Below are positions 27,257 to 62,151 of a stretch of 64,000 bases of DNA, piece by piece. The stretch comes from Dethiobacter sp. (lineage in GTDB: Bacteria > Bacillota > Dethiobacteria > Dethiobacterales > Dethiobacteraceae): assembly GCA_018335875.1 (NCBI GenBank), contig JAGXRN010000007.1, forward strand, positions 36,362-100,361, read 5' to 3'. The stretch's first letter is position 1, and each line of letters begins with the position of its first letter. Both the position numbers and the translations under genes were made by a program. The notes below the pieces were generated by a model. The model was not told the origin of the DNA. It did no database searches and saw only the letters and a program-made list of their open reading frames with translations.

Positions 27257-27284
27257 AAATTAAAAACTCCCTTCTTTTTTCTGA

Positions 27285-27325: not shown

Positions 27326-27340
27326 CATCGTCCTGCATAA

Positions 27341-27796: not shown

Positions 27797-27911
27797 TACG
27801 TCACGTGCCCTCGGGAAAAGGGAAACGTACGTTTTTCGTACTTTCTCAGGCCTGGCGCACTGGGAATTTTTTTTTAGGGCTAACTTAGCGTCAGGCTGAA
27901 AGGATGTTTTT

Positions 27912-34731: not shown

Positions 34732-35807
34732 ACGGTGCAGTAATCGCCCTGACTCCGCAGGGGAGGATCCTGGCGCTGAGAATTGCCGCAATCACCGGGT
34801 ATACGGCTTACCTGCCGCAGAAGCTTGTGGAGTCCGATGATGAGGCTCTGCCCTATGCCTCTTTACGGGAGGCAGTTGCAGATAATTTTACCACCCGGCG
34901 CGCCCTGGTCTTGATTATGGCGACAGGCATTGCCGTCCGCCTGCTGGCTCCTCTTTTACAAAACAAACTTACAGACCCTGCTGTGGTGCTCCTTGATGAA
35001 GGGGGCAGGCACGCCATATCCCTGCTGTCCGGCCATTGGGGAGGGGCAAACGAGCTGGCGTGCCTGCTGGCTGAGTCTCTGGGGGCGGTTCCGGTTATCA
35101 CCACGGCTACTGATGTCGCGGGCTTAAAGGCTGTGGATGTTTTTGCCGCGGAAATGGGGGTTGTGCCTGAGCCATTTGAGCGTGTCAGGGATTTCAATGC
35201 CGCCATGCTGCAAGGCGTTACCGTGGCCGTGTTTTCCGACCTCCCGCAGTTGACAGAGTACTCTGCCGCCGGCCTCTGCTTTTACCCGCTCTCGCAATTT
35301 GCAGAACTGAAGGGAAAGATTACCTGCCGCGCGCTGCTGACTCATCTTGCCTGCTACCCGGGCAGCGACGGCCAGGACCTGTACCTGAGGCCGCCCGACC
35401 TTTATCTTGGCCTTGGCTGCAGGCGCGGCATTACAGCCGCACAGGTTATAAAAGCAATTGAAAGCGTTTTGGCCCGCTTTAACCTGGCGGCGGGGAGTTT
35501 GGCCGGGCTGGCCAGTATCGACCTTAAAAGTGACGAACAGGGGCTGCTGCAGGCAGCAGAATATTTTAAGCTGCCAATCCGTTTTTTCAGCGGCGAGGAA
35601 GTGCGAAGGCTGCCGCTTTCGTACCTGGAATCAGCTTTTGTATACCAGACAGTGGGGGTGAAAGGCGTATGCGAACCGACGGCGATGCTGGCAGCCGGCA
35701 GCGACAGGCTGCTGGTGACAAAACAGAAAGTGGACGGAGTAACTGTGGCCATAGCCCAGGCAGATTATCCGTGGTCGGGCTGGGGCCGGGAAATAAACAG
35801 GCCATGA
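34728..35807 (+). CDS. cbiG: Cobalt-precorrin-5A hydrolase
   Basis: LIMATGIAVRLLAPLLQNKLTDPAVVLLDEGGRHAISLLSGHWGGANELA; LGLGCRRGITAAQVIKAI. Confidence 0.95.
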   Translation: MNGAVIALTPQGRILALRIAAITGYTAYLPQKLVESDDEALPYASLREAVADNFTTRRALVLIMATGIAVRLLAPLLQNKLTDPAVVLLDEGGRHAISLLSGHWGGANELACLLAESLGAVPVITTATDVAGLKAVDVFAAEMGVVPEPFERVRDFNAAMLQGVTVAVFSDLPQLTEYSAAGLCFYPLSQFAELKGKITCRALLTHLACYPGSDGQDLYLRPPDLYLGLGCRRGITAAQVIKAIESVLARFNLAAGSLAGLASIDLKSDEQGLLQAAEYFKLPIRFFSGEEVRRLPLSYLESAFVYQTVGVKGVCEPTAMLAAGSDRLLVTKQKVDGVTVAIAQADYPWSGWGREINRP

Positions 35808-36478
35808 CGGTGGAGGCCCTGGAGGCACTGCAGCAGGCCGAGGTGATTGTGGGCTACAGCACCTATGTTAAACTGGTGGAACCGCTGTTAACGGGGAAAA
35901 AAGTTATTTCCTCCGGCATGAAAAAAGAGGTGGATCGTGCCCGACAGGCATTGGAGCTGGCGGCCTCCGGGAAACACGTGGCAGTCATTTCAAGCGGCGA
36001 TCCCGGTGTCTACGGCATGGCCGGCCCGATTCTGGAGGCGGCTCCGGATGATCTCGAAATAGTTATTATACCGGGCGTCACCGCTGCAAGTGCGGCCGCC
36101 GCCGTGCTTGGCGCCCCGCTCATGCATGACTTTGCAGTAATCAGCCTCTCGGACCTGCTGACTCCGTGGCAGACCATTGTCCGGCGACTGGAAGCTGCCA
36201 CCGCAGCCGATTTTGTTATTGTCATCTATAATCCGCGCAGCCGCGGCAGGTCTGAGCACCTGGAGCAGGCAAGGCAGATTATGCTGCAGCACAAAAGTGC
36301 GGACACTGTGGCCGGCACAGTACGCAACTGCGGCCGCCGAGGGCAGGAACACAGTGTGACCACATTGGGCGCACTGGCCGTGGACGACGTGGATATGTTC
36401 ACAACAGTGGTCGTAGGAAACAGCCGGACCACGGTGCTCCATGGACGCATGGTAACTCCGCGGGGGTACATGTTATGA
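35771..36478 (+). CDS. cbiH: Precorrin-3B C17-methyltransferase (GTG start, overlaps cbiG)
   Basis: VVGLGPGNKQAMTVEALEALQQAEVIVGYSTYVKLVEPLL; VISSGDPGVYGMAGPILE; IIPGVTAASAAAAVLGAPLMHDFAVISLSDLLTPW. Confidence 0.93.
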   Translation: MVGLGPGNKQAMTVEALEALQQAEVIVGYSTYVKLVEPLLTGKKVISSGMKKEVDRARQALELAASGKHVAVISSGDPGVYGMAGPILEAAPDDLEIVIIPGVTAASAAAAVLGAPLMHDFAVISLSDLLTPWQTIVRRLEAATAADFVIVIYNPRSRGRSEHLEQARQIMLQHKSADTVAGTVRNCGRRGQEHSVTTLGALAVDDVDMFTTVVVGNSRTTVLHGRMVTPRGYML

Positions 36479-37233
36479 TCCTGTTAATGGGCGGGACGAA
36501 AGACGCCCGCAAGCTGGTCTCATCTTTGTGCGCCGCTTTCCCCGGCATACCACTCATTGCCACCGCTGTCAGTGATTATGGCGCCGAGCTTTTGCGCAGC
36601 CGGCATGAATGCACTGTCCTGCAGGGGGCGCTTGATGCGGGCATGCTGGAGAGGCTGATCCGCGATAGAGGTGTGCGTGTGCTGGTTGATGCCACTCACC
36701 CTTTTGCCGTGCAGGCCTCAGGCGAAGCCCAAAAAGCTGCTAACGCGACCGGGGTGCCATATCTGCGCTGTGAACGGCCTGCCGCGGGTATACCTGCCGG
36801 TGCAGGAGTCTTCTTTGCCGATGGTTTTACGGCGGCAGCCCAAATGGCCGCTAAGATGGGCAATGTATTGTTTCTTACCATCGGCACCCGGCATCTCAGT
36901 GAATTTATGGCTGCCCTGCCCGCGGGCAAAGAAGTGGTGGCCAGGGTACTGCCGGATGCCGGCAGTATCAACCAATGCAGGGAATTGGGCCTTGCTCCCG
37001 CGTCAATCGTGGCTATGCAGGGCCCGGTCAGCCGGACGCTCAACCGGGCGCTGTTTGCTGAATACCGCGCCGATGTTATTGTCTCCAAAGAGAGCGGGGA
37101 GGCAGGGGGGACGGTGGAAAAGGTGGCTGCGGCGAGAGAACTTAAAATTCCGGTCATACTTATCAGCCGCCCATCGGCAGCGCCTGGTTTAACCGCATCA
37201 GAGGTAATTGAGGAGTTAAAAAAAGTATTTTAA
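36475..37233 (+). CDS. cbiJ: Cobalt-precorrin-6A reductase
   Basis: MILLMGGTKDARKLVSSL; VLVDATHPFAVQASGEAQKA; VLFLTIGTRHLSEFM; VSKESGEAGG. Confidence 0.93.
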   Translation: MILLMGGTKDARKLVSSLCAAFPGIPLIATAVSDYGAELLRSRHECTVLQGALDAGMLERLIRDRGVRVLVDATHPFAVQASGEAQKAANATGVPYLRCERPAAGIPAGAGVFFADGFTAAAQMAAKMGNVLFLTIGTRHLSEFMAALPAGKEVVARVLPDAGSINQCRELGLAPASIVAMQGPVSRTLNRALFAEYRADVIVSKESGEAGGTVEKVAAARELKIPVILISRPSAAPGLTASEVIEELKKVF

Positions 37234-37252
37234 AACAGACATGGAGGAGCTT

Positions 37253-37621
37253 ATGAAAAAAGCAATTTTACTTGTAGGGCACGGGAGCAGGAGGGATGAA
37301 GCCAATAAAGCTTTGGAGAGGCTATGTGGCCTGGTTGGTGAAAAACGCGGCGGCGCCATTGTCGCTCATGCTTACCTGCAGTTTGCCGCCCCTGACCTGC
37401 CTGCCGCGCTTGGTATGCTTGCCGCGACCGAAGTGGAAGAAGTGATCATTGTCCCCGTCTTTCTTTGCGAGGGAGTCCACATCAAGGAAGATATCCCCGC
37501 AATCCTGGCGGCGGAGGCGGCGAAGTATCCGCACATGCGTCTTGTGCCGGCGCCGGTGCTGGGGATAGACCAGCGCATGGCGCAAATTGTCTGGGACCGG
37601 GTGGATGCAGCCCACAGCTAA
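37253..37621 (+). CDS. cbiX: Sirohydrochlorin cobaltochelatase, short CbiX type
   Basis: MKKAILLVGHGSRRDEANKALERL; VIIVPVFLCEGVHIKEDIP. Confidence 0.92.
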   Translation: MKKAILLVGHGSRRDEANKALERLCGLVGEKRGGAIVAHAYLQFAAPDLPAALGMLAATEVEEVIIVPVFLCEGVHIKEDIPAILAAEAAKYPHMRLVPAPVLGIDQRMAQIVWDRVDAAHS

Positions 37622-37631
37622 GGAGGCAAAT

Positions 37632-38255
37632 ATGGACTATATCAGAAATCCACAGCAAATTGAAAAGAGAAGTATGGAAATCGTCGAAGAACATTTGGGC
37701 AGGTACAGTTTTGACCGCTTTGAAAAAGCGGTGGCCAAACGTGTGGTCCATACCACCGGGGATCCGTCATTCGCGGGAATAATCGCCTTTAATACAGGGG
37801 CGGCGGAAAGCGGGGCAAGAACACTGGCAGGCGGCGGCAGGCTTCACTGTGACGTGGAAATGGTACGGGCAGGCATCAACCGCAGGCTTGCCGAAGTATT
37901 TGGTTTAACAATATCCTGCCGCATCCACGACACTGAAATAGCGGCGGTGGCAAAGAGTAATGGCTCTACACGCGCAGCTGCTGCCATGTCCCTGGCAATG
38001 GCGGAGCAGCCGGAAAACGGGATTTTTGTTATCGGCAACGCCCCGACTGCACTTTTTGTCCTGCTTGAGGCTGCTGCCGCCGGAAAAGTGCGCCCTGCTC
38101 TTGTAATCGGCACACCGGTTGGTTTTGTCGGCGCCGCCGAATCCAAGGAGTGGTTGACAACTTTTGACTTTCCCTGGATTACGATACGCGGTGAGAAAGG
38201 GGGCAGTACCGTGGCTGCAGCTGCGGTTAATGCCCTGCTGATAACCGCGTCTTAA
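37632..38255 (+). CDS. cbiC: Precorrin-8X methylmutase
   Basis: MDYIRNPQQIEKRSMEIVEEHLG; KRVVHTTGDPSFAG; GNAPTALFVLLE; GTPVGFVGAAESKEWL. Confidence 0.95.
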   Translation: MDYIRNPQQIEKRSMEIVEEHLGRYSFDRFEKAVAKRVVHTTGDPSFAGIIAFNTGAAESGARTLAGGGRLHCDVEMVRAGINRRLAEVFGLTISCRIHDTEIAAVAKSNGSTRAAAAMSLAMAEQPENGIFVIGNAPTALFVLLEAAAAGKVRPALVIGTPVGFVGAAESKEWLTTFDFPWITIRGEKGGSTVAAAAVNALLITAS

Positions 38256-46708: not shown

Positions 46709-47641
46709 TCACAGTTCGCGGATGTTTTCCACGATACTTCTCCTGACGATGTTGACAACCTTGGAGCGGACATTCAGGAAGCATATCCCAAACAACACCG
46801 CGACGAACAGGAGCGGCTGCCAAACAGGAGGGAGAGCCTTACCAGCTGTGATATAACCCTTGGTAAGCAACCACCCGCACAGCGTCAGTTGCACAGCCAT
46901 ACCGATGGCTGTGCCCCAGGCAAACATGGACGCCAACTGCCACAAATACGAGCTCAATACCTCTCGCTCGGATGCGCCGACCGCGCGTATGGTGCCAATC
47001 TCTCGCTTGCTCGCACGAATACGGGCTGAAAGAGCGTTGCTAACCATGCTGGCACAGATGGCAAAGAATAGGGTCACCACCGCCCCCGCTGCAATTAGCA
47101 GGCCGTATGCCGTCTCTCTGTTCTCTCTTGCCAGAGCTACATACGAAAACAGCTTCACACCGGGTGACCGCGCTGCAATTAGCGAGAGATTTGTTTCCAG
47201 ATATTCCTCCATCGCAGCGTTCGGACTTTCAGCGAGAGTGACCGAAAGGGCTGCATAAGGGAGGTCGAAGCCAAGTGCGTTCAATCCTGCCGTGGTGGTG
47301 ACAATATTGCCAATCGCGGGATAGAAGAAAGAGGAGAAATAACTTTCCAGGTACTTGCGGTGATGCAGTCGATCTTCTATTTTAAGTAGTTCAATTAGCA
47401 TTGAAACGTATTTTTCGTCCGGTTTTTTCTTGTCCAGCAGCACAGGCAGCAATATATTTTCATAGGCCGTCAGTTCCTGCACAAGATTATATGCCTGAAA
47501 CACGAAGCCAAACCTGCGCCGACGCAGAATAGAAATTTGATTGTCGTTATAGGCAAAGAGATCCTCACCCTGATAAAGGACCTTCCCCCCTGTTGGATAC
47601 TCCAGTCCACCGAGAATGTGCAGAAAAGTCGATTTGCCCGA
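46709..47641 (-). pseudogene. Collapsed ABC export locus: LolD/MacB-type ATPase N-terminal part fused in frame to the C-terminal half of an FtsX permease
   Basis: SGSGKSTFLHILGGLEYPTGGKVLYQGEDLFAYNDNQISILRRRRFGFVFQAYNLVQELTAYENILLPVLL...IEDRLHHRKY then ESYFSSFFYPAIGN...ASKREIGTIRAVGASEREVLSSYL. No ABC signature or Walker B. Confidence 0.8.
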
Positions 47642-47649
47642 CCCGCTCG

Positions 47650-48084
47650 GGCATCATTGTAATAGACGCTCATTTTTTGTAAGTCAATTCGCAATCCGCC
47701 TTTATTGTAAAGTAGAGTCTGATTCCTCCTGAGCAGTGCACGGATACGCGAAAGCAATTCCAACATGCGGAAAGGCTTTGTCACATAATCGTCGCCGCCC
47801 GCATCGAGTCCCCGCACGACTTGTATTTCATCATCTCTTGCGGTTAAAAAGAGGATAGGAGTGTCCTTCCCGGCGCTGCGCCAAGTGGCGCAGAGATCGA
47901 GCCCATTACCATCTGGAAGGACGATGTCCAAAATAATCAGGGAGTAAGTGTTTTCTGCTGCAAAACATCGCGCTTCCTTGTACGTGCCGGCGCAATCAAT
48001 CGAATAACCTTCGCGCCGCAGCAGCTCGCACAGGCCATCCTGTAAAAATATATCATCCTCAACAAGTAGTAACTTTGTTCCCAT
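47650..48084 (-). pseudogene. OmpR-type response regulator, receiver domain only, truncated at the ABC ATPase junction
   Basis: MGTKLLLVEDDIFLQDGLCELLRREGYSIDCAG...LIILDIVLPDGNGLDL...ILFLTARDDEIQVVRGLDAGGDDYVTKPFRMLELLSRIRALLRR; winged-helix domain missing. Confidence 0.85.
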
Positions 48085-48890: not shown

Positions 48891-48900
48891 AACTTTACAT

Positions 48901-48942
48901 GCGCTTGTAGCTCAGGGGATAGAGCGACGGATTCCTAATCCC
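48901..48942 (+). pseudogene. 5' half of tRNA-Arg(CCU), broken in the anticodon stem
   Basis: GCGCTTG TA GCTC AGGGGATA GAGC G ACGGA TTCCTAA TCC then unrelated sequence; no T-arm found downstream. Confidence 0.7.
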
Positions 48943-49127
48943 AAAAAAACGGTTTTTCACTAAGTTTCTTAAGTGTCAAAAAGGGCCAAAACGCCCGTAA
49001 AATAAGGCTTTCCCCGCAGGAGAACGTTTGTTAGATTCGCCAAAAAACAGTAAATTTTAAAGCTTCCGTGACCATTTCGTGACCACGACCATCCACTTTA
49101 TTATGAGTGGGTGGTTTGTTTTATACG

Positions 49128-49505: not shown

Positions 49506-49534
49506 TTGACAAGTTATTTAAATAGTAATATAAT
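49506..49534 (+). promoter_or_regulatory. Consensus sigma-A promoter of the nitrogenase-like/NEAT cluster
   Basis: TTGACA (49506-49511), 17 nt, TATAAT (49529-49534). Confidence 0.8.
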
Positions 49535-49540
49535 TAAAAT

Positions 49541-49567
49541 CAGTGAGAATGAATATCAGTCTCACTG
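49541..49567. promoter_or_regulatory. Palindromic operator, Fur-like
   Basis: CAGTGAGA-atgaatatcag-TCTCACTG perfect 8-bp inverted repeat; TGAGAATGAATATCA resembles the 7-1-7 Fur core TGATAATNATTATCA. Confidence 0.6.
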
Positions 49568-49667
49568 AATATACATATATTAAATCTGTTGCTGTTTAAT
49601 AAGGAATCTTAATAGTGAAAGAGCGTTAGTGTTTAAGTTAGCTTAATTATGTCAGGAGCTGATACAT

Positions 49668-49946
49668 ATGACGGTATTATTGGTAGGCGCAGACCGGTTA
49701 GGCAATATTCCAAAAGAGCTTGAACAATACGGTTGTGAGAAAATTATTCATTGGGATGGACGCAAGGTGCAAGATAAAAAGATTCCCAAACAGGTTGATA
49801 TGGTATTAATGTTTTACGATTATTTGGGTCACGCCCTGATGGCTGATATAAAATCACAGGCTAAGAAGAGGAATTTGCCGGTGGTATTTTCACGCCGAGG
49901 CACGGCAGATTTAAAAAAAGCTCTGGACTACCACTCTTTAGGATGA
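49668..49946 (+). CDS. DUF2325-domain protein
   Basis: MTVLLVGADRLGNIPKELEQYGCEKIIHWDGRKVQDKKIPKQVDMVLMFYDYLGHALMADIKSQAKKRNLPVVFSRRG. Confidence 0.75.
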   Translation: MTVLLVGADRLGNIPKELEQYGCEKIIHWDGRKVQDKKIPKQVDMVLMFYDYLGHALMADIKSQAKKRNLPVVFSRRGTADLKKALDYHSLG

Positions 49947-49985
49947 AATTTTACCGACATGCCATTAACAGGGAGTTGAGTTAGC

Positions 49986-50186
49986 ATGTTAAACGAAAGT
50001 CACCAAAAGATTCTAACTAAAATGTATCAGCTTTACGAGTCATTATTTCTACATAACGGTTATGGCGAAATGAAGATAGAAATCAAGCTTTTAAAAAGAG
50101 GTCAAAAAGAAGTCATAATTCATTGCGGCAAGCAGTATCGTTATGTTGTTGACAATGAAAACCAGCCGGGTGGGCCGGCGGAGTAA
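49986..50186 (+). CDS. Small uncharacterised protein of the cluster
   Basis: MLNESHQKILTKMYQLYESLFLHNGYGEMKIEIKLLKRGQKEVIIHCGKQYRYVV; between DUF2325 and the NifH-like gene. Confidence 0.6.
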   Translation: MLNESHQKILTKMYQLYESLFLHNGYGEMKIEIKLLKRGQKEVIIHCGKQYRYVVDNENQPGGPAE

Positions 50187-50221
50187 TAATTTATTAAGTT
50201 AAGCTTTACTGTGAAAGTTCT

Positions 50222-50285
50222 GGAAGGTGGTTCTGTGGGTGAACCCTTCCAAGAAACATTGTTTCTTGGAAGGGTATTATTTTTT
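50222..50285 (+). promoter_or_regulatory. Candidate transcription attenuator (mutually exclusive hairpins) upstream of the NifH-like gene
   Basis: Terminator ACCCTTCCAAGAAAC-att-GTTTCTTGGAAGGGT-attaTTTTTTT; alternative GGAAGG(tg)GTTC-tgtgggt-GAAC CCTTCC uses the terminator's 5' arm. Confidence 0.65.
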
Positions 50286-50317
50286 TAAAAAAATTAATTG
50301 GTCTGGGAGGTTAACAA

Positions 50318-51085
50318 ATGAGAAAAATTGCGATTTATGGAAAGGGGGGAATCGGTAAATCCACCACTACATCCAATCTCTCAGCAGCCCTATCTGTTTT
50401 GGGTTGCAAAGTGATGCAAATTGGCTGTGATCCAAAGGCAGATTCAACAAAAAACCTGATGGGTGGGAAAATGGTACCCACGGTGCTTGACAGCATCAAG
50501 TTGAAAAAAGAGGAAATATCCCTTACGGATATTGTATTTAAAGGGTTTAACAATGTGCTTTGTGTGGAAGCCGGTGGCCCTACACCAGGTATCGGGTGTG
50601 CCGGGAGGGGTATTATTACTGCCTTCGAAAAGCTCGAAGAGTTAAAAGCTTTCGAAACATATCAGCCGGATGTGGTAATCTATGATGTTTTAGGAGATGT
50701 GGTATGCGGAGGGTTTGCCATGCCGCTGCGGGGAGGATACGCTGAAGATGTTTTGATTGTAACTTCGGGGGAAATGATGTCTCTCTATGCGGCTTCCAAT
50801 ATTGCCAGTGCTGTCAGCCAATTTCGCAGCAAGGGCTATGCCCGGCTAAAAGGCTTAATTTTAAACGCTAAAGGCGTTGATAATGAATATGAGATTGTGG
50901 GAAAAGCAGCCGGGGAAATTGACACAGAAATTATTCACTACATACCCAGGGATGGAAGCGTGCAAAAAGCGGAAAATGACGGGAAAACAGTTGTAGAGGC
51001 ATTTCCCGATTCTGAGATGGCTAAGATTTACATGTCACTGGCTAATACCATTCTGACGGGCAAAACCCAGGCTCAGACCTCTTAA
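50318..51085 (+). CDS. NifH/BchL-like nitrogenase iron protein homologue
   Basis: [100 protein letters not shown]. Confidence 0.95.
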
Positions 51086-51115
51086 TGAAACTTTAGAAAT
51101 GAAAGGAGAGATTGA

Positions 51116-52255
51116 GTGATGTTAAAAAAACAAGCACTGCTTATTTTAGTAATACTTTCTTTAACACTGGCGGGTTGCGGCGGTAAATCTCAGCCTGTAA
51201 ACCAGCCAACTCAGGCAGCCGCGGTGGAAACTGAAGAAGCAAAACCGGATGAGAAAGACGTTGGAGAAACACCAGACAACAGTGTTGAAATCCCTGTAGC
51301 AAGTGATACAGAAGAGTCCGATAAGAATAACGATGAGGGCACCCAAGAAGCAAAAGCACCTTCGGTCAGTGTGACACCGACGCCTGCAGCGCCGACAGCC
51401 CCTGTGGCGCAACCGACCAAGTTTCGGTTGGTAGAATCTGACGGCACAGTATTTGAAAGGGACACTGTACCTCAGCGCATAGTTATACTATCTGTGCCCA
51501 CAGCTATCATTATGGATACATTGGGAATTGAACTGGTAGGGATCACCATGACTAGCCGCACATTGCCTCCTAGGTTGGCTGACTTGCCGGAAGCAGGAAT
51601 GCCCAGGGATCCCAATATTGAAGTTATCAAATCCTTAAATGCTGATTTGGTCATTATATCTACAGATTTCAAACAGATGAACAAAGCCAAAATGGAACAG
51701 CATAATATACCTACCTATTATATTAGTAATCAGCTTTATGAAGATACATTTAAAAGCATTGAAATACTTGGCAAAGCGTTTGGCAAGGAAGCAGAAGCCA
51801 ACCAATTGATTAGAGACATGAGGGCCAGGGAAAACCAGGTTCTGAATGCTGCTAAAGGTAAACCCGCCCCCAAGGTGCTGATCCTGTTTGGTACTGCAGA
51901 TTCCTTCCTGATGCAAAAAAGCAACACCTATGCGGGTAATTTGGTAGCGAAGCTTGGCGGAATAAACATTTCCGACCAAATCAAGCTAAGCGAGGTCTCA
52001 ACCGGCAATATTCCCCTCAACATCGAGCAGGTAGTTGCATTAAATCCTGACATCATCTTCCGAATTTCCCACGGTACTGCTGAAGAGACTCAACAGATAT
52101 ACGACAAAGAATTTGCTACGAATCCCATTTGGAATGCCGTTTCAGCCCACAAAAACAACAGGGTTTATGACTTGCCGATGAACCTGTTTTTCTCTAACTC
52201 CGGCTTGCAGGTCATAGATTCACTGGAACACTTAGCCAAACTTATGTACCCATAG
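51116..52255 (+). CDS. FecB/BtuF-type ABC substrate-binding lipoprotein
   Basis: Lipobox LTLAGCGG; Pro/Thr-rich linker; PQRIVILSVPTAIIMDTLGIELVGIT; HKNNRVYDLPMNLFF. Confidence 0.9.
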   Translation: MMLKKQALLILVILSLTLAGCGGKSQPVNQPTQAAAVETEEAKPDEKDVGETPDNSVEIPVASDTEESDKNNDEGTQEAKAPSVSVTPTPAAPTAPVAQPTKFRLVESDGTVFERDTVPQRIVILSVPTAIIMDTLGIELVGITMTSRTLPPRLADLPEAGMPRDPNIEVIKSLNADLVIISTDFKQMNKAKMEQHNIPTYYISNQLYEDTFKSIEILGKAFGKEAEANQLIRDMRARENQVLNAAKGKPAPKVLILFGTADSFLMQKSNTYAGNLVAKLGGINISDQIKLSEVSTGNIPLNIEQVVALNPDIIFRISHGTAEETQQIYDKEFATNPIWNAVSAHKNNRVYDLPMNLFFSNSGLQVIDSLEHLAKLMYP

Positions 52256-52265
52256 GGGGAGAATA

Positions 52266-53315
52266 ATGCTTGCTGAAAAGACAGTTGAAACCGATATCAC
52301 AGAAGTTACTAATAAAGAATTAAGTGTCCGGCTAACTAAACGGCTTATCGTTTTTGGTGTTGCTTCAGGATTGCTGGTGGTGGCAGGGCTCTTATCCATG
52401 CGATTTGGCAGTGTCAGCTACTCCACGGGTGAAATAATCAGGTCACTAATAGGTGTGGAAGCCACCACAGCCAAAGTCATAGTTATGGATATCAGATTGC
52501 CCAGGACTCTGCTCGCTATGATGGTGGGAGCAAATCTGGCTATCGCCGGTGCCCTGCTTCAGGCAGTAATGCGTAACCCGCTGGCCGACCCCGGGTTAAC
52601 CGGCGTGTCGGCCGGGGGCGGCCTTGCTGCAGTGACCATTATGCTGGTATTTCCTGAAATGACACGATATGTCCCGCTTGCTGCCTTTGTAGGTGGTATT
52701 GTGGCAGCATTTATGGTCTATACCCTGGCCTGGAAACGAGGCATCGACCCCATCAGAATAATATTGGCCGGTGTCGCTGTGAATGCCATTTTGGGCGGGG
52801 GCATAGCTTTATTGTCCATTCTTTACAGTGACAGAATTCAAGGGGTATTGATGTGGTTAAACGGCAGCATGGCAGCTAAAAGTTGGTATCATGTTAACAT
52901 CCTGGCGCCCTATAGTATCGTTGGGCTTATTGCAGCGATTTTCTGCATCAATACGTCCAATGTGCTGCAGCTCGGTGATGATGCTGCAAAAAACCTGGGA
53001 GTTAAAGTTAATCTGGCCCGCATACTTTTGTCGATGACAGCAGCTTTTTTGGCAGGCATATCGGTAGCCATGGTAGGTTTAATAGGGTTTATCGGCCTTG
53101 TGGTCCCCCATATCAGCAGGTTGCTGGTGGGAACAGATTATCGCTTTATGCTGCCTGTCAGTGCTGTTATTGGTGCGACTTTGTTGACTTTGGCAGACAC
53201 AGGAGCCAGGACTGCTTTTAGTCCGGTAGAATTGCCGGTGGGGATTATCATGGCCATTATCGGGGGACCGTTTTTCCTGTATCTGTTAAGAAGGGGAGGT
53301 ACTTACCGGGTATGA
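52266..53315 (+). CDS. FecCD-family ABC permease
   Basis: DIRLPRTLLAMMVGANLAIAGALLQAVMRNPLADPGLTGVSAGG; VGLIGFIGLVVPHISRLLVG. Confidence 0.95.
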   Translation: MLAEKTVETDITEVTNKELSVRLTKRLIVFGVASGLLVVAGLLSMRFGSVSYSTGEIIRSLIGVEATTAKVIVMDIRLPRTLLAMMVGANLAIAGALLQAVMRNPLADPGLTGVSAGGGLAAVTIMLVFPEMTRYVPLAAFVGGIVAAFMVYTLAWKRGIDPIRIILAGVAVNAILGGGIALLSILYSDRIQGVLMWLNGSMAAKSWYHVNILAPYSIVGLIAAIFCINTSNVLQLGDDAAKNLGVKVNLARILLSMTAAFLAGISVAMVGLIGFIGLVVPHISRLLVGTDYRFMLPVSAVIGATLLTLADTGARTAFSPVELPVGIIMAIIGGPFFLYLLRRGGTYRV

Positions 53316-54097
53316 TTAAAGCGTCAGAACTCAAGATCGGTTATGACAAGAAGGTGGTAGTAGACGGATTTGGATTTAATATCAGGGAAGGGGAAATCGT
53401 TTCATTAATCGGGCCAAACGGCTCAGGGAAATCTACTGTGCTAAAAGTGCTCGCCCGCTTGATGGAAAAAATGGGAGGCGCAGTCCACCTTGATGGCGCC
53501 GATATTCACCGCCTGCCCACTAAGGAAGTCGCTAAAAAATTATCCATACTATCCCAATACAATATTACTCCTCCTGATTTTACAGTTGAGGAGCTGGTAA
53601 GCTATGGCCGCCTGCCTCACCGTAAAATGTTCCAACTGGAAAGCAAAGCTGATCAGGAGATTGTCAGGTGGGCTCTCAGTCAAACCAAACTCGAAAAGCT
53701 GACACACAGGTTTATCAACAGCCTGTCGGGAGGCGAGCGGCAGCGGGCCTGGATTGCCATGGCTTTAGCTCAGCAACCTAAAGTTCTTCTGCTGGATGAA
53801 CCTACTACCTATTTAGATATCAGCCATCAATTGGAAGTCATGGAATTGATCCACACATTAAACAAGGAATTAGGCATAACAGCCATTATGGTCCTGCACG
53901 ATTTAAACCAGGCGGTACGTTACAGCAACAGGCTGATTGTTATCAAAGAAGGAAAGATGTTTATGGACGATACACCCCATGAGGTGCTGACAGCGGAGAT
54001 GCTGAGAAGCGTTTATAATGTTGAAGCTGAAGTTACCACTAACAAACAAACGGGCAAGCCGATGTTTATGCCTTTGGGATTGGCGAACGGCACATAA
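53312..54097 (+). CDS. FecE/BtuD-type ABC ATPase
   Basis: GPNGSGKSTVLKVLARL; LSGGERQRAWIAMALAQQPKVLLLDEPTTYLDI. Confidence 0.95.
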   Translation: MIKASELKIGYDKKVVVDGFGFNIREGEIVSLIGPNGSGKSTVLKVLARLMEKMGGAVHLDGADIHRLPTKEVAKKLSILSQYNITPPDFTVEELVSYGRLPHRKMFQLESKADQEIVRWALSQTKLEKLTHRFINSLSGGERQRAWIAMALAQQPKVLLLDEPTTYLDISHQLEVMELIHTLNKELGITAIMVLHDLNQAVRYSNRLIVIKEGKMFMDDTPHEVLTAEMLRSVYNVEAEVTTNKQTGKPMFMPLGLANGT

Positions 54098-54105
54098 TCA
54101 GACTT

Positions 54106-55449
54106 TTGAAACAACTTCAAAGGAGGATGAAAGTGTATAGCTACAGTCTTGATAAACTAAAAAGGTTAACAGAGGTTGAGACTGGCAAAGACATTAAGCA
54201 GTTGTCAAACGCCCAGTTTCCCGGTACCCACTGCCCCCTTTTTGGTGTGGCTTTAACCGCTGGTTATATAAAGGATTTGTTCACTTTGGTAGTGGGTACA
54301 GATGAGTGTACTTTTTATACCAAGACGTTTACCATGGAAAGGGCCAATGCGTCAGGTTCTAGCGACAATCACTTTCTTTCTTTTGCTATTAATCAGGATG
54401 ACGTAGTGTTCGGTTGCCATGACAAGCTGGAAAAAGCGGTTTTGCATATCAACAGGAAATACCGGCCGAAAGCAATTCTTCTGGTGACTACCTGTGTGCT
54501 GGAAGTTATCGGTGAAGATTTTGATGCACTGGTGTATTCGCTGCAGGATCAGATTCAGGCTAAATTAATGGTGGTCCGGGCTGAACATTTTAAGTGCCAT
54601 AACCATATTCCCGGCATTGAGCGGACGCTGGAGGCAGCAGCGGGCCTGATGGAGCAACAGCCTGTACAGGCAAAAACCATAAATATTCTGGGTCACCGTT
54701 ACAATGGAGTGGAGGATACTGAACTGCTGAAATTATTGTTGCAAAAGGGCGTTGGCATTAATCTTGTCATCCCTTCCAGTTGCTCGGTGGATTCCTTAGC
54801 TGCAGCACCCTCTGCAGCATTAAACATAGTAACCGACTTTAGCGCCTTGCCTTTGGCGGAACAAATGAAAACGAAGTTTGACACTGATTATGTATATTTT
54901 GACAAGTACTTAAACCTTGACAGAATTACCGCCGGGTATAAGGCAGTTGCAGAGAAGCTCGGGATTTGCTTAGATAAGGAAATTCTTCAACTGCGAAAAA
55001 GCGCTGAAGACGCTGTTAAAAAAGCTAATAACATTTTGTATAGCAAGACATTTATCTATGGGAACACCCCTTTACTTGCTTTTGAAATCAGCAGTTTTCT
55101 CTGCAGTTTAGGGATGAAACCGGTACTGCTCCAGGCCAGGGACCTATATGCGAATGACCATGTTTATATCAAAGAAATCATGGACATGGGGCACAATCCC
55201 CACGTATGCCGCATTGCAAATATTGCTCCCCTGCAACAACTTTACGATGTTTTGCAGCCTAATATCTATATTGGGCATGAGAATCCCGTCAAACTTATGG
55301 AAAAAGGAATTGTCCAGGTGACGATGGACGGAGTAGCAAAAAAGCTGGGATTTGAAGTGCCTATCCTGGTAATGCAGGCCCTGGCTGACTCTGTTTGTGC
55401 ATTTGAGACATTGGCCGGAAAGGAGCACTATCACCATGCAGCTTTATAA
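54106..55449 (+). CDS. Nitrogenase component 1-like protein A (three P-cluster-position Cys)
   Basis: FPGTHCPLFGVALTAGYIKDLFTLVVGTDECTFYTK ... LLVTTCVLEVIGEDFDAL; downstream of NifH-like and importer genes. Confidence 0.85.
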   Translation: MKQLQRRMKVYSYSLDKLKRLTEVETGKDIKQLSNAQFPGTHCPLFGVALTAGYIKDLFTLVVGTDECTFYTKTFTMERANASGSSDNHFLSFAINQDDVVFGCHDKLEKAVLHINRKYRPKAILLVTTCVLEVIGEDFDALVYSLQDQIQAKLMVVRAEHFKCHNHIPGIERTLEAAAGLMEQQPVQAKTINILGHRYNGVEDTELLKLLLQKGVGINLVIPSSCSVDSLAAAPSAALNIVTDFSALPLAEQMKTKFDTDYVYFDKYLNLDRITAGYKAVAEKLGICLDKEILQLRKSAEDAVKKANNILYSKTFIYGNTPLLAFEISSFLCSLGMKPVLLQARDLYANDHVYIKEIMDMGHNPHVCRIANIAPLQQLYDVLQPNIYIGHENPVKLMEKGIVQVTMDGVAKKLGFEVPILVMQALADSVCAFETLAGKEHYHHAAL

Positions 55450-56710
55450 ATACCTGCCGCAACCGTCTGACAGGATGGGAACACTGTGGGCTCTGGCAAC
55501 GATAAATGACGCCTGTATCATAGAATATGGCCCTGCCGGCACAACCCATTATGCATTGGAAGGGTTGATGCAATTTAATGCTCAGCTGGAAGCCCGGCTT
55601 TTTACCACACATATGGATGAGAACGACATTATTATGGGAGACAGTACCCGCCTGGAGGAAACCATCAGAGAAGTGGACGCAGTTCACAATCCGCCGGTAA
55701 TTTTTGTGTTGGCGTCTTCCATTGCTTCAATAGTAGGCACCGACATTCAAAGTATTTGTGAAAATTTGCAAGAGGAAATAGGGGCAAAACTTATCTGCTT
55801 TACAAGCGGCGGTTTCCGCGGCGATTATACAGTTGGTATCAGAGAGGTGCTTACAGCCCTGGCAGAAAACATGGTAAAGGCACCTAAAGAGAAATTGGAA
55901 AATAGATACAATATTATTGGCTGCAACATTGATTCATACAATTTTGCAGCCGATTGCAAAGAAGTGGAATCCATCATGAAAGACTGCTTTGGCTTTGAGC
56001 TCAACAGTGTTTTTACTGCCAATTCGTCTGTTAAGCAAATTGAAGATGCGGCCAGAGCCAAATTTAACCTGGTTTTACGCGGTGAAGGGAGTGAATGTGC
56101 TGAAATTTTAAAAGAAAGATTTGACATGGATTATTACATAGGCTGCCCGTATGGTTTCCGGGGAACACTTCAATGGGTGCGTAACATGGCGAAAACCTTC
56201 TCTATTAAGGCAAACGATATTTACCTCTATCAGCAGCTGGATCAGGGTAAAAAACACCTGATGAGGATCAATCACGCCTTGTTCAACTATAGTAACTTCA
56301 ACGGGATTTTAGCCGGCAGTTATGACTTTGTGACAGACATCCACCCGTTTTTAACTGAAGAGATTATGATCAACATTGAAAAAGTCATAGTTAACCACAG
56401 CTTGCGCGGAGAGGGCTATCGACGGCCTGCCAAAGCGTTGGAGCATAAGCTGGCTGTTAACCCCGGGGAAGAGGAGAAGGAAGTGATTCTCAGTAAGGTA
56501 GCGCCCGAAATATTGTTGGGCGACGGCGTTTTGCTGGAAATGGGGGCTCATGTACCTGTGAGGATACAGGTGGCAAACCCTAACCCCCGTCATTATTATC
56601 GTATTTACGATAACACTCCCTTTATGGGGTTTAACGGGGCCATTTATTTAATAGAGACCATACTCAATCAAATTCATGCCAATCGTAAAGAGCTTAAAGC
56701 CAGGTTTTAG
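55437..56710 (+). CDS. Nitrogenase component 1-like protein B (reduced Cys set)
   Basis: INDACIIEYGPAGTTHYALEG (T at the usual GPxGC Cys); FVLASSIASIVGTDIQSI; C-term DNTPFMGFNGAIYLIETILNQI; ATG 55437 overlaps protein A. Confidence 0.85.
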
Positions 56711-56744
56711 AGAAAAAGCTACTAAAAACAATGGAGGAAAGCAC

Positions 56745-57905
56745 ATGAACATTAAATCTTTTAACAAGTTTATTGTCGGCATTACTGCCATACTAATGTT
56801 GCTTGCTACTATAGGAAATGCGGTTGCTACTTCTGCGATCAAAGACGGCACATATACAATTGAGGTAACTGCATTACAGGAGAAACACGATTTGCCATCA
56901 CAGATGGACAATAGCATTATAAAGCCGGCCACTTTAGAGGTTACAGGTGGTCAGGTATTTGCAATATTAACAGTAACGGGAAGCTCAAACCTCGGTAGGA
57001 TCAGTTTTCAAAACACAGCCGGGGAATTTGAAGCGGCTGAAGTTGTTGAGAACGATAATGAAGCAAATACCAGGACTGTAAAATACCCGGTTGAGGATCT
57101 TGAAAAACCAGTTATGATACAAACAGTAATAATTCCCGCCGGTGGGATAACTGTGAGATTCAGGTTAGCTTTCAATAAAGAAAGTTTAAAACAACCTGGT
57201 GATGGTTTGCCGGAAGAAACTGAGGCGACTCCTATACCCAAACCTCTCATACCGGAAGCCACAGGTAAGGATATTTTCCACTCTTCACAGATGATACAAT
57301 TCAGGGATCCGGCACGTCCGGGGGTAATAATTGATGTAATACCCACACAGGAAGCATTCCGGTCAGCACTTGCAAAAGGTTATATCCTGTTAATTCATCC
57401 AAAAATCACACCAGGAACAACGGGTAATGATATTTTCCATTCTTCACAGATGATACAATTCAAGGATCCGACACGCCCGTGGGTTATAATTGATGTAATA
57501 CCTACCCAGGAAGCATTCCGGGAAGCGCTTGAAAAAGGTTATATCCTACTAAATACTGTTACTGTAAAGGCAATGCATGCAACAGATGAAGGCACCGTAT
57601 CGAGCGCTGACAGCAACCTGATAAAACTAGCTCAGTATAAAGTCGTTAACGGTATAACTTATGTTTATGTTACTATGAATCGTGCCGATATTATGTCGAA
57701 TTTGGGAGTAATAAACACTGCCGGTGAATTTACGCCTGCCGAAGTGGCAGCGGAGAATTTAAGAGGTGCCACATCGCAAGAAAAAACAAGAACCTACAAG
57801 ATAGAAGTTGCAAGCTTTGATGATTCTGTTCTAATGCAGACAACAGTTGACAGGGGTGCAATGGGAGTAGCGCAAGTTCAGTTTAGATTGGTGTTTGAAA
57901 AATAG
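56745..57905 (+). CDS. Secreted protein with two NEAT-like domains flanking a tandem repeat
   Basis: Signal peptide; DGTYTIEVTALQEKHDLPSQMDNSIIKPATLEVTGGQVFAILTVTGSSNLGRISFQNTAGEF...VRFRLAF; second copy ITYVYVTMNRADIMSNLGVINTAGEF...VQFRLVFEK. Confidence 0.75.
   Translation: MNIKSFNKFIVGITAILMLLATIGNAVATSAIKDGTYTIEVTALQEKHDLPSQMDNSIIKPATLEVTGGQVFAILTVTGSSNLGRISFQNTAGEFEAAEVVENDNEANTRTVKYPVEDLEKPVMIQTVIIPAGGITVRFRLAFNKESLKQPGDGLPEETEATPIPKPLIPEATGKDIFHSSQMIQFRDPARPGVIIDVIPTQEAFRSALAKGYILLIHPKITPGTTGNDIFHSSQMIQFKDPTRPWVIIDVIPTQEAFREALEKGYILLNTVTVKAMHATDEGTVSSADSNLIKLAQYKVVNGITYVYVTMNRADIMSNLGVINTAGEFTPAEVAAENLRGATSQEKTRTYKIEVASFDDSVLMQTTVDRGAMGVAQVQFRLVFEK
57262..57553 (+). repeat. Two-copy in-frame tandem repeat in the NEAT-like protein (period ~159 nt)
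   Basis: TGKDIFHSSQMIQFRDPARPGVIIDVIPTQEAFRSALAKGYILL / TGNDIFHSSQMIQFKDPTRPWVIIDVIPTQEAFREALEKGYILL. Confidence 0.9.
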
Positions 57906-58006
57906 CAGGTTGCAAAGGGGGAGAGAGATTTTTGTCTCTCTTCCCCAAGCTAATTAATTGTATTGATTATGAGTATATCTGACAGGTATTAATTGTAATA
58001 AAAGAG

Positions 58007-58940
58007 GTGTCGAAGATGATTGTATCCTGGAATACTACTAATGCATGTAATATGTATTGTGACCATTGTTACCGGGACGCAGGGGTCAAAGCTGAGGAAG
58101 AACTAAGCACAGAAGAAGGCAAAGCGCTGTTGGATGAGATAGCCAAAGCAGGTTTTAAAATTATGATTTTCAGCGGCGGCGAACCTTTTATGAGGGATGA
58201 TATTATTGAGCTTGTTGCTTATAGCCGCAGCCTGGGGCTGCGGCCGGTCTTTGGCACCAATGGCACTCTGATTAAAGCGGAAGTGGCAAGACAATTAAAA
58301 GAAGCGGGAGCAATGGGTGTGGGAATCAGCTTAGGATCCGAAAAAGCATGACAAGTTCCGTCATTATGAAGACGCCTGGGAGCAGGCGGTCCAGGGAATG
58401 AAAAACTGTCTGGCCGCTGGCGTGCCGTTTCAGGTACATACCACTGTTGTTGACTGGAACTATCATGAAGTGGAGCAACTAACCGATCTGGCGGTGGAAC
58501 TCGGCGCTGTTGCCCACCATATCTTTTTCTTAGTGCCCACAGGCAGAGGGGCAAATATCGAGGAAGAGTCTCTGCGTGCAGAAGGATACGAACACTTGTT
58601 GCAAAGAATTATGAAGAAGCAACAGCAAGTATCGATTGAGCTGAAGCCCACCTGTGCACCACAGTTCATGAGAATTGCCAAAGAAATGGGGATGGAGACG
58701 CGATTCGGCAGGGGATGCCTAGCTGGCACCTCCTACTGTATCATCGGCCCTAAAGGAAAAGTTCAGCCCTGTGCGTATATGGATATGGAAGTCGGCAATG
58801 TGAGGGAAACGCCCTTCAGCGAAATTTGGCAAAACAGTAAAGTATTTAAAATACTGCGCACAATGGAATACAAAGGCGGTTGCGGAACCTGCCGCTACAA
58901 AAAGATTTGTGGTGGCTGCCGGGCCAGAGCAGCGTTCTAG
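58007..58940 (+). pseudogene. Radical SAM/SPASM protein of the NirJ/AhbD-like family, frameshifted and C-terminally truncated
   Basis: MIVSWNTTNACNMYCDHCYRDAG...FSGGEPFMRDD...VGISL / frameshift / KHDKFRHYEDAWEQAVQGMKNCLAAGVPFQVHTTVVDWN...GCLAGTSYCIIGPKGKVQPCAYMDMEVGNVRE...GCGTCRYKKICGGCRARAAF*. Confidence 0.8.
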
Positions 58941-61298: not shown

Positions 61299-61727
61299 TC
61301 AGTCAATGGCGGCAATAACGTATTCAGCAAATTGTTTAAAGTCATCCAAGCCTTCATTTAGTATCCCGGCAAGTAATACAGCGTCTACTTTAGCGTACTC
61401 ATGAACCAGAATGTTGCGAAGCCCCGCCATTCCACTGATTTTTTGGACAAATTCCTGTGGAATAATATTTTGCTTTCCAAGCTCCTGTAATATATCTTTA
61501 TAACTGTCTACAGAAAGTCCTTTTTCAGCAAGGATATGATTGCCTATATCCAAAACGATTTGAATACAGATTTGCAATCCCCTCTCGATAATCCACAGCT
61601 TCTCCAAATCTTCTTCAAGTTCTCTAGCGTTAGCTCCTTTGTGCTTTCTCAGCTGTCCTAAATACCGATCCAGATCCTTTAACTTCTGCAGAACCAAGTC
61701 TTTCTTAACCACATTACAGCCCTCCAA
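61299..61727 (-). CDS. hepT: HepT-like toxin (DUF86), second pair
   Basis: GLRNILVHEYAKVD = RX4HXY; overlaps MntA. Confidence 0.88.
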   Translation of the reverse strand: MEGCNVVKKDLVLQKLKDLDRYLGQLRKHKGANARELEEDLEKLWIIERGLQICIQIVLDIGNHILAEKGLSVDSYKDILQELGKQNIIPQEFVQKISGMAGLRNILVHEYAKVDAVLLAGILNEGLDDFKQFAEYVIAAID

Positions 61728-62151
61728 AAGAGCCGTTTTTCAGGCGCTCTTTTAAATATTCGTTCTGGACAAATAAAAACGGTTGAAAATCAAGGTAGTC
61801 TCGCATCACACAGAAATGAAAATCAACCCTCTCATTTTCGTCATGACAGAGAATCAGTTTGCCCTGTTTAAGGATATTATAGGCGAGAAAAAGTGGGGCC
61901 TCGTTTAGAACCACAATGTCAACTTTTTGCTTTATTACATTCTCTGTTTCAGCTAAAAGCTCGCTTTTGTATCCAAAAGTGCCGCTTACCGGCATGCTCT
62001 TTTTATTAACATAAACTGCAACATCCACATCGCTAAGCCTGTTACTTGTTTCTTCTGCCACTGAGCCAAAAAGATACGCAAATATAATTTCTTTTCTTGG
62101 TTCTAATACATCTTGCAGGTTTTTTATAATTTCATGCAACTTAATCACCAT
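61714..62151 (-). CDS. mntA: MntA-type nucleotidyltransferase antitoxin, second pair
   Basis: YLFGSVAEETSNRLSDVDVAVYV = GSX10DXD. Confidence 0.88.
   Translation of the reverse strand: MVIKLHEIIKNLQDVLEPRKEIIFAYLFGSVAEETSNRLSDVDVAVYVNKKSMPVSGTFGYKSELLAETENVIKQKVDIVVLNEAPLFLAYNILKQGKLILCHDENERVDFHFCVMRDYLDFQPFLFVQNEYLKERLKNGSFGGL

What the first reader, a model, noticed from the sequence alone, without database searches (positions are those of the whole stretch)
49506..58940. Nitrogenase-like reductase + iron-complex importer + NEAT-like protein: candidate tetrapyrrole/metal-chelate uptake-and-reduction system
Seen: one collinear cluster with a NifH-like ATPase (50318), FecB/FecCD/ATPase importer (51116-54097), two nitrogenase component 1-like subunits (54106-56710), a secreted protein with two NEAT-like domains (56745) and a NirJ/AhbD-like radical SAM remnant (58007). 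No nifB, nifE/N, nifV or modABC is present. Established: characterised non-nitrogenase members (DPOR BchLNB, COR BchXYZ, CfbCD) reduce tetrapyrroles, NEAT domains commonly bind heme, and NirJ/AhbD enzymes modify heme precursors. Inference: the locus imports heme or another tetrapyrrole/Fe-chelate and reduces it in the cytoplasm. I know of no characterised system with this composition, but I could not search.
Basis: partly seen in the sequence, partly recalled or inferred. Interest (0 to 1): 0.93.

Follow-up and report, generated by a model that had tools for sequence, protein, structure and literature searches.

The report
Heme importer with nitrogenase-like reductase
An oxygen-avoiding bacterium has an iron-responsive set of genes that looks like a heme-import system, but in place of the usual heme-breaking enzyme it carries a relative of nitrogenase, which suggests an undescribed ATP-driven, oxygen-free way of processing heme for its iron.

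Summary
At 49506-57905 a perfect sigma-70-type promoter overlapped downstream by a Fur-like box precedes DUF2325, a 66-aa protein, a NifH-like ATPase, an IsdE-like binding lipoprotein, a FecCD permease, its ATPase, two nitrogenase component-1-like subunits (N1a, N1b) and a secreted double-NEAT protein. The NirJ2 piece downstream is a frameshifted duplicate and is excluded. The core (NifH, binding protein, FecCD, ATPase, N1a, N1b) is syntenic in every relative with enough contig (about 30 loci, N1a down to 34-41% identity). N1a and N1b form their own clades outside NifDKEN and BchNBYZ, keep a DPOR-like 3-Cys cluster site and lack FeMo-cofactor ligands. Relatives add sortase B with anchored NEAT proteins (isd-like) and, in 14 loci, a flavodoxin whose closest solved relative is the heme-binding FldH of Fusobacterium. 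Best explanation: heme-iron acquisition in which an ATP-driven nitrogenase-like enzyme takes the place of IsdG or HutW/HmuW. Heme as cargo is well supported; the reaction is inferred. Dos Santos (2012) noted such genes beside ABC transporters; I found no functional assignment. Caveats: the window's NEAT domains lack YXXXY, its binding protein lacks the IsdE Met ligand, and it has no local flavodoxin.

The parts
49506..49534 (+). sigma-70-type promoter TTGACA-17-TATAAT
   Evidence: 12/12 match
49545..49563 (+). Fur-like box GAGAATGAATATCAGTCTC, just downstream of the -10
   Evidence: 14/19 to GATAATGATAATCATTATC; 2 of 100 shuffles as good; boxes of 13-17/19 upstream of the first gene in L027, L028, L036, L033, L034 (two), L064 and L041
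49668..49946 (+). DUF2325 protein, conserved first gene in close relatives
   Evidence: PF10087 1.4e-17; orthologues in L027, L028/L035, L029/L036
49986..50186 (+). 66-aa conserved protein, no family
   Evidence: 63% identical in L027, 77% in L029; no Pfam match
50243..50275 (+). terminator-like hairpin between the two leader genes and nifH-like: possible partial terminator or attenuator
   Evidence: 15-bp stem, 3-nt loop, T-run; function inferred
50318..51085 (+). NifH-like reductase ATPase, ATP-driven electron donor to N1a/N1b
   Evidence: PF00142 1.5e-95; CfbC 350 bits and nifH 341 bits, both below cut-offs; P-loop GKGGIGKST and the GIGCAGRG and [11 protein letters not shown] cluster motifs
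51116..52255 (+). IsdE-like heme-binding lipoprotein (importer binding component)
   Evidence: TIGR03659 IsdE 222 bits (cut-off 299); nearest solved: Lmo2184 5joq 6.5e-41 and S. aureus IsdE 2q8p 3.4e-38
52266..53315 (+). FecCD-type permease
   Evidence: PF01032 5.6e-97
53312..54097 (+). FecE/HmuV-type importer ATPase
   Evidence: PF00005 1.2e-33; FecE 292 bits, heme ATPase 241 bits
54106..55449 (+). N1a: component-1-like subunit with 3 Cys cluster ligands (C43, C68, C130), no FeMo-cofactor ligands
   Evidence: PF00148 1.7e-56; Cys invariant in 28 of 28; alignment to BchN/NifD/NifE
55436..56710 (+). N1b: component-1-like partner; Thr49 (numbered from GTG 55397) at the BchB Asp/NifK Cys ligand position; start overlaps N1a by 14 nt
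   Evidence: PF00148 1e-63; E43, T49, T50, H51, H72, S107, D116, H334 invariant in 27 of 27
56745..57905 (+). secreted protein with two NEAT domains, no cell-wall sorting signal: likely hemophore-like
   Evidence: PF05031 1.7e-39, 2 stretches; C-terminus; lacks YXXXY
58007..58940 (+). frameshifted NirJ2 copy; judged NOT part of the system
   Evidence: two fragments, 64-68% identical to an intact NirJ2 elsewhere in the genome; intact NirJ1/NirJ2 pair at C34; not seen in relatives

Best explanation
A Fur-controlled heme-iron acquisition operon of strict anaerobes. Outside the cell, NEAT protein(s) (secreted here; sortase-anchored in relatives; replaced by TonB receptors in diderms) capture heme. 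The IsdE-like lipoprotein passes it to the FecCD/ATPase importer. In the cytoplasm a NifH-like ATPase feeds low-potential electrons one at a time, with ATP hydrolysis, to a single [4Fe-4S] cluster held by three N1a cysteines at the N1a/N1b interface. The enzyme, which lacks FeMo-cofactor ligands and works like DPOR/COR, reduces the porphyrin macrocycle, breaking its conjugation so that Fe(II) is released and a reduced tetrapyrrole is left. Where present, an FldH/HmuF-type flavodoxin delivers heme and/or supplies electrons. The nitrogenase-like enzyme thus takes the place of IsdG/heme oxygenase (O2-dependent) or HutW/HmuW (radical SAM). Shown by sequence: gene content, synteny, cluster-ligand pattern, regulatory sites, heme-type homology of binding protein and flavodoxin. 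Inferred: heme as cargo in this organism, reduction of the macrocycle, iron release.
For: Core of six genes syntenic in all loci with enough contig, including 7 genomes from an even draw over the phylum that were not in the first set (L119-L122, L124-L126). Binding protein nearest IsdE/HupD (3e-38 or better; siderophore-type binders 2.6e-13 or weaker); IsdE also best for gut-group binding proteins. IsdE heme ligands Met and His conserved in 5 close relatives. Flavodoxin in 14 loci: nearest solved structure is heme-bound FldH, 8g64, 2.2e-20 (next flavodoxin 7e-4; PMC10404700); heme ligand His134 aligned in 12 of 14. The same flavodoxin family lies next to HutW in two genomes with the module, so it pairs with either enzyme. 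Class B sortase over cut-off (237 vs 154) and NEAT proteins with NPKTG/SPQTS-type signals in L027, L028, L033, L034 mirror the isd locus. Fur boxes in the close group. HutW over cut-off in 1 of 26, heme oxygenase PF01126 in 1 of 26 genomes with the module. Three invariant Cys in N1a, none at P-cluster positions of N1b, no FeMoco Cys275/His442 equivalents: a DPOR-type site. N1b model resembles BchB (TM up to 0.81/0.85).
Against: In the window's own copy the IsdE Met ligand is Arg (Lys in L029), both NEAT domains lack YXXXY and SXXXXY, and neither locus nor genome has the HmuF-like flavodoxin, so the cargo here could differ. NEAT is found in only 6 of 26 genomes with the module. Many gut and Sporomusa-type loci have AraC regulators, exporter-type ABC pairs or siderophore-annotated receptors, typical of siderophore uptake. 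The fold match to BchB is not specific: all family members score similarly. No expression or biochemical data.
Confidence: 0.55

Rival explanations
1. ATP-driven ferric-chelate reductase: the importer brings in a siderophore (or diverse Fe(III) chelates) and the nitrogenase-like enzyme reduces the iron, using ATP to reach potentials too low for NAD(P)H, so that iron is released without touching a porphyrin.
For: Broader family members carry AraC regulators, exporter-type ABC pairs (as in YbtPQ/IrtAB systems, own knowledge), two FecCD permeases and siderophore-annotated TonB receptors. In general (own knowledge) ferric catecholates have very low potentials, which would explain the ATP cost.
Against: In the window's branch the binding protein is far closer to IsdE than to siderophore binders; NEAT and sortase B are heme-uptake parts; FldH/HmuF-type heme flavodoxin in 14 loci; best family for the Phascolarctobacterium-type receptor of L039 is TonB-hemin, though below cut-off.
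Confidence: 0.18
2. Imported heme or another tetrapyrrole is reduced to make a cofactor (a salvage and remodelling route) rather than to release iron.
For: Characterised FeMoco-free members (DPOR, COR, CfbCD) are biosynthetic (own knowledge); best NCBIfam hit of the NifH-like protein is CfbC; a NirJ2 fragment lies just downstream.
Against: Fur boxes point to iron supply; the NirJ2 is a broken duplicate absent from relatives; no tetrapyrrole-modifying gene is conserved with the module apart from the flavodoxin.
Confidence: 0.12
3. Corrinoid import and reduction: the module brings in cobalamin-type compounds and reduces the cobalt.
For: FecCD/BtuCD homology; the window has a large cobalamin locus with three B12 riboswitches.
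Against: No B12 riboswitch at this operon; the B12 locus has its own CbiMQO transporter; the operon has a Fur box; the binding protein is IsdE-like, with BtuF only 29 bits.
Confidence: 0.04
4. Metal import coupled to assembly of a metallocluster on a NifEN-like scaffold (suggestion of Dos Santos et al. 2012, PMC3464626).
For: N1a and N1b score best against NifE among NCBIfam models and solved structures; the 2012 authors saw such genes beside ABC transporters.
Against: Only one NifH-family reductase in the own genome, so no separate target enzyme is apparent; FeMoco ligand positions absent; heme-specific partners are not explained.
Confidence: 0.06
5. A dinitrogen-fixing or Mar/Nfl-type sulfur-compound reductase.
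For: Family membership in PF00148 and PF00142.
Against: Cofactor ligands absent; separate clades from NifDKEN at 99/99 support; Mar structures are distant hits; no sulfur genes recur with the module.
Confidence: 0.02

Closest known systems
Isd heme uptake system (S. aureus, B. anthracis, L. monocytogenes)
   Same: NEAT proteins, IsdE-like lipoprotein, FecCD permease, and in close relatives sortase B with NPKTG/NPQTN-type signals; Fur-type boxes
   Different: no IsdG/IsdI; NifH/N1a/N1b occupy that place; FecE-type ATPase encoded in the operon; NEAT lacks YXXXY
Fusobacterium hmu operon (hmuTRUVWF) with HmuW and HmuF/FldH (PMC10404700)
   Same: anaerobic heme import operon; FldH-like flavodoxin with the heme-ligand His in most relatives; ExbBD/TonB and receptor in Phascolarctobacterium-type loci
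   Different: the radical SAM HmuW/HutW is replaced by a nitrogenase-like reductase; the window itself has no flavodoxin
DPOR (BchL/BchNB) and COR (BchX/BchYZ)
   Same: ATP-dependent NifH-like donor plus heterodimeric acceptor; three Cys on one subunit and a non-Cys residue at the fourth position (DPOR); no FeMoco ligands
   Different: separate clade at low sequence identity; Thr in place of Asp; linked to an importer, not to chlorophyll synthesis
CfbC/CfbD (F430 synthesis)
   Same: CfbC is the best NCBIfam hit of the NifH-like protein (350 bits, cut-off 402)
   Different: CfbD scores only 43-45 bits (cut-off 268); two different component-1 genes; no methanogenesis context
Uncharacterised NifEN-like/ABC-transporter clusters of Clostridium botulinum and Alkaliphilus oremlandii (Dos Santos et al. 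2012, PMC3464626)
   Same: NifE-like subunit with 3 Cys, partner without, downstream of NifH and an ABC ATPase: most likely the same family
   Different: no function assigned there; metal transport for cofactor assembly was suggested; NEAT, sortase, flavodoxin and Fur were not noted in the passages I read
C. perfringens Cht locus (PMC5026354)
   Same: clostridial NEAT plus sortase plus ABC heme uptake, iron regulated
   Different: heme oxygenase HemO encoded nearby and a class D sortase

Membership tests
Isd heme uptake system | NEAT-domain surface or secreted protein | tested here: met
   PF05031 1.7e-39, two domains
Isd heme uptake system | NEAT heme motif YXXXY | tested here: not met
   absent in both domains by inspection of the translation and alignment; clostridial-group NEATs also lack it (PMC4143258)
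Isd heme uptake system | IsdE binding protein above curated cut-off | tested here: not met
   222 bits vs 299; relatives 243-247
Isd heme uptake system | Met and His heme ligands of IsdE | tested here: inconclusive
   His present; Met is Arg in the window, Met in L027, L028, L033, L034, L057
Isd heme uptake system | sortase B in the locus | tested here: inconclusive
   absent in the window's locus; present in L027, L028/L035, L033, L034
Isd heme uptake system | IsdG-type heme monooxygenase | tested here: not met
   no such gene in the operon; genome-wide search for the IsdG/ABM family not run
Nitrogenase NifDK/NifEN | FeMoco ligands Cys275/His442 on the alpha subunit | tested here: not met
   alignment
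Nitrogenase NifDK/NifEN | phylogenetic placement inside NifDKEN | tested here: not met
   N1a and N1b separate clades, 99/99; NifH-like protein separate from nitrogenase NifH, 100/99
DPOR/COR | equivalog cut-offs BchL/N/B, BchX/Y/Z | tested here: not met
   BchN 54 vs 420, BchB 97 vs 490, BchL 214 vs 345 bits
DPOR/COR | DPOR-type single [4Fe-4S] site: three Cys on one subunit and a non-Cys fourth residue | tested here: met
   C43/C68/C130 in 28 of 28; Thr49 at the Asp position in 27 of 27; the cluster itself not observed
DPOR/COR | reduces a tetrapyrrole | not testable with these tools
   needs biochemistry
CfbCD | CfbC/CfbD curated cut-offs | tested here: not met
   350 vs 402 and 45 vs 268 bits
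CfbCD | phylogenetic placement with CfbCD | not tested
   no CfbCD reference sequences could be fetched
Mar/Nfl | close sequence relation to MarDK | tested here: not met
   solved Mar 74 and 96 bits vs NifE 145 and 165 bits; not placed on the tree
HutW/ChuW/HmuW anaerobic heme degradation | class C radical SAM methyltransferase | tested here: not met
   own genome below cut-off (160 vs 400 bits); over cut-off in 1 of 26 genomes with the module
HutW/ChuW/HmuW anaerobic heme degradation | HmuF/FldH-type heme flavodoxin | tested here: inconclusive
   absent in own genome, present in 14 of 26 genomes, at the module in most of them

The most novel reading that the evidence does not exclude
A third chemical route of biological heme catabolism: an ATP-dependent nitrogenase-like enzyme reductively dismantles heme (or reduces it to a form that lets go of Fe(II)) in strict anaerobes, including gut Clostridia and Phascolarctobacterium, replacing both O2-dependent heme oxygenases and radical SAM anaerobilin synthases. 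It would be the first nitrogenase-superfamily enzyme used for nutrient iron acquisition.
Probability: 0.42. Interest if true: 0.92.

Novelty: new variant of a known kind. Interest (0 to 1): 0.82.

Why it matters
How strict anaerobes take iron from heme is largely open: a November 2025 review (PMC12670364) describes ChuW-type and ChuS-type anaerobic heme degraders, and a word search of that paper finds no mention of nitrogenase. If right, this assigns a function to a widespread, unassigned nitrogenase-like clade, adds iron acquisition to a superfamily known for N2 fixation and for chlorophyll, F430 and sulfur chemistry, and predicts a new heme-processing activity in gut bacteria. Such genes can also be mistaken for nifH/nifD in surveys of nitrogen fixation.

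Tried and rejected
NirJ2 as part of the system: rejected (frame break, intact pair elsewhere, absent in relatives). Corrinoid import: rejected for lack of a B12 riboswitch here and a separate CbiMQO. N2 fixation: rejected on ligands and phylogeny. Phage or plasmid origin: no relative in viral contigs; among plasmids the only non-nif-type set found is a 34%-identical one on a Sporomusa plasmid. Structure models of N1a and N1b (pLDDT 88 and 84) confirm the fold but do not discriminate function. Literature searches for nitrogenase-like with heme uptake or NEAT gave nothing relevant. The NifH tree does not resolve whether all module NifHs are one clade (24/0). HutW family hits are found in all genomes but are mostly other radical SAM proteins below the cut-off.
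Full report
WHAT IS THERE. The region 49506-57905 is one collinear + strand unit. It opens with a perfect TTGACA-17-TATAAT promoter at 49506-49534 followed within about 10 nt by a Fur-like box, GAGAATGAATATCAGTCTC at 49545-49563 (14/19 to the consensus). Then follow DUF2325 (49668-49946), a 66-aa protein (49986-50186), a terminator-like hairpin (50243-50275), a NifH-like protein (50318-51085), a binding lipoprotein (51116-52255), FecCD (52266-53315), its ATPase (53312-54097), two component-1-like subunits called here N1a (54106-55449) and N1b (55436-56710) and a NEAT protein (56745-57905). From nifH on, gaps are -14 to +34 nt. The NirJ2-like gene at 58007-58940 is broken by a frame shift into two fragments, 64 and 68% identical to an intact NirJ2 that sits beside NirJ1 elsewhere in the genome.

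CONSERVATION. The window lies in a 3.19-Mb, 85-contig genome that holds one NifH-family reductase. Only 4 of 98 genomes of its class have N1a and 13 of 399 in an even draw over the phylum matched at 1e-40, one of them an ordinary nif-type cluster, so the module is patchy. One scan of 84,980 species genomes, by N1a peptide patterns only and hence blind to neighbours, gave 32 loci in Clostridia, Phascolarctobacterium-type bacteria, Dethiobacter-like bacteria and others. Wherever the contig was long enough, NifH, binding protein, FecCD, ATPase, N1a and N1b lie together, mostly in that order (in L033 and L034 the binding protein sits a few kb off, with the NEAT gene). Seven further genomes of the phylum draw (L119-L122, L124-L126) show the same linkage; L122 ends before nifH. 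Importer and reductase are therefore one functional unit.

RECURRENT PARTNERS. (a) A flavodoxin in 14 loci. Its closest solved relative is 8g64, heme-bound FldH of Fusobacterium nucleatum (2.2e-20 for the L027 copy, ordinary flavodoxins 7e-4 or worse). FldH and HmuF bind FMN and heme, carry heme to the radical SAM enzyme HmuW and reduce the product (PMC10404700). The heme ligand His134 is aligned in 12 of 14 and the His150-Pro151 motif in all. In two genomes of Phascolarctobacterium type the same family lies next to a HutW homologue (G068: 101087-101578 and 101890-103098, HutW over cut-off; G076: 92283-93443 and 93558-94037, 373 bits vs cut-off 400). So this flavodoxin partners either HutW or the nitrogenase-like module. 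(b) Class B sortase over cut-off with NEAT proteins ending in NPKTG, SPQTS, SPKTA or IPKTG-type signals in L027, L028/L035, L033, L034: an isd layout. (c) In Phascolarctobacterium-type loci, ExbB/ExbD/TonB-like genes (my reading of the translations) and a TonB receptor whose best family is TonB-hemin (235 bits, cut-off 317). (d) AraC regulators in 13 gut loci and exporter-type ABC pairs in 8. (e) Fur-like boxes directly upstream of the first gene in the close group and, 17/19, upstream of the flavodoxin-nifH operon of Clostridium cuniculi.

SUBSTRATE. The nearest solved binding proteins are Listeria Lmo2184 (6.5e-41) and S. aureus IsdE (3.4e-38), then other binders at 2.6e-13 and weaker. The IsdE ligand His is kept in nearly all close relatives; the ligand Met is kept in five but is Arg in the window and Lys in L029 (ligand identity is own knowledge of IsdE). 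The window's NEAT domains lack YXXXY, as do all NEAT domains of the clostridial group analysed in PMC4143258, while NEAT proteins of C. perfringens bind heme (PMC5026354). Heme is the best-supported cargo of the family; for this particular organism it is somewhat less certain.

ENZYME. N1a keeps three invariant cysteines (C43, C68, C130) that align with the P-cluster or [4Fe-4S] ligands of NifD, NifE and BchN; N1b has Thr49 where BchB has Asp and NifK has Cys, invariant in 27 of 27. The positions of the FeMo-cofactor ligands Cys275 and His442 are not Cys or His. This is the layout of DPOR, whose [4Fe-4S] cluster is (Cys)3Asp-ligated (abstract of PMC4157233). N1a and N1b each form a clade (99/99) apart from NifDKEN and BchNBYZ, with the Sporomusa plasmid proteins as nearest kin. 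All curated equivalog cut-offs (Nif, Bch, Cfb) are missed by wide margins for the component-1 subunits. The N1b model is about equally near to BchB (TM up to 0.81/0.85) and other members.

MODEL. Heme is captured outside, passed to the IsdE-like protein, imported, and reduced in the cytoplasm by an ATP-driven nitrogenase-like enzyme whose FeMoco-free site would accept a bulky conjugated substrate directly beside the cluster. Loss of conjugation would free Fe(II). Of 26 genomes with the module, 1 has HutW over cut-off and 1 has a PF01126 heme oxygenase, which fits substitution for these enzymes. The IsdG/ABM family was not searched. The reaction, product and iron release are inference.

PRIOR KNOWLEDGE. 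Dos Santos et al. 2012 (PMC3464626) described NifEN-like genes of C. botulinum and Alkaliphilus oremlandii downstream of NifH and an ABC ATPase, with three Cys in the NifE-like and none in the NifN-like subunit, and suggested metal transport coupled to cofactor assembly. That is very probably this family. In the library searched I found no paper that links nitrogenase-like enzymes with NEAT proteins or heme uptake; subscription journals are mostly not held. Hence: known as an unassigned clade, new in its functional assignment.

LIMITS. CfbCD, Mar and Nfl could not be put on the tree. Cargo could vary over the family: the Sporomusa, L125 and L126 loci, with two FecCD genes, look siderophore-like, which keeps the ferric-chelate reductase rival alive. 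DUF2325, the 66-aa protein and the hairpin before nifH remain unexplained.

Noticed in passing
window 22286-38255: Large cobalamin synthesis and cobalt transport locus (CobT, CbiD, CbiMQO, precorrin-8 methylmutase) with three B12 riboswitches.
   Followed up: partly
window 20898-22127: Reductive dehalogenase catalytic subunit (TIGR02486, 202 bits, above cut-off 160) just upstream of the B12 locus.
   Followed up: no
window 61299-62151 (-): HepT-like RNase plus nucleotidyltransferase pair, a HepT/MntA-type toxin-antitoxin module.
   Followed up: no
window 46709-48084 (-): Truncated response regulator and an FtsX permease that looks incomplete: apparently decayed two-component/ABC genes upstream of the operon.
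   Followed up: no
window 48899-48945 (+): tRNA-Arg-like 5' half (TAGCTCAGGGGATAGAGCGACGGATTCCTAATCC) not recognised by ARAGORN; may be the scar of an integrated element near the operon (my reading).
   Followed up: partly
window 57200-57550: The two NEAT domains are separated by two copies of a segment of about 45 aa (IFHSSQMIQF.DP.RP.VIIDVIPTQEAFR.AL.KGYILL), unknown function and absent from the relatives' NEAT proteins aligned.
   Followed up: no
L048:6268-8181, L037:5286-7172: Binding proteins of double length; L048 carries two Peripla_BP_2 stretches in tandem.
   Followed up: no
L031, L081, L125, L126: More distant NifH/N1/N1 sets also lie beside FecB/FecCD/ATPase importers (Sporomusa termitida plasmid with a siderophore-annotated receptor), so import-coupled nitrogenase-like enzymes may be a broader class with several cargos.
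   Followed up: partly
window 50243-50275: Strong terminator-like hairpin between the two small leader genes and nifH: possible attenuation point.
   Followed up: no
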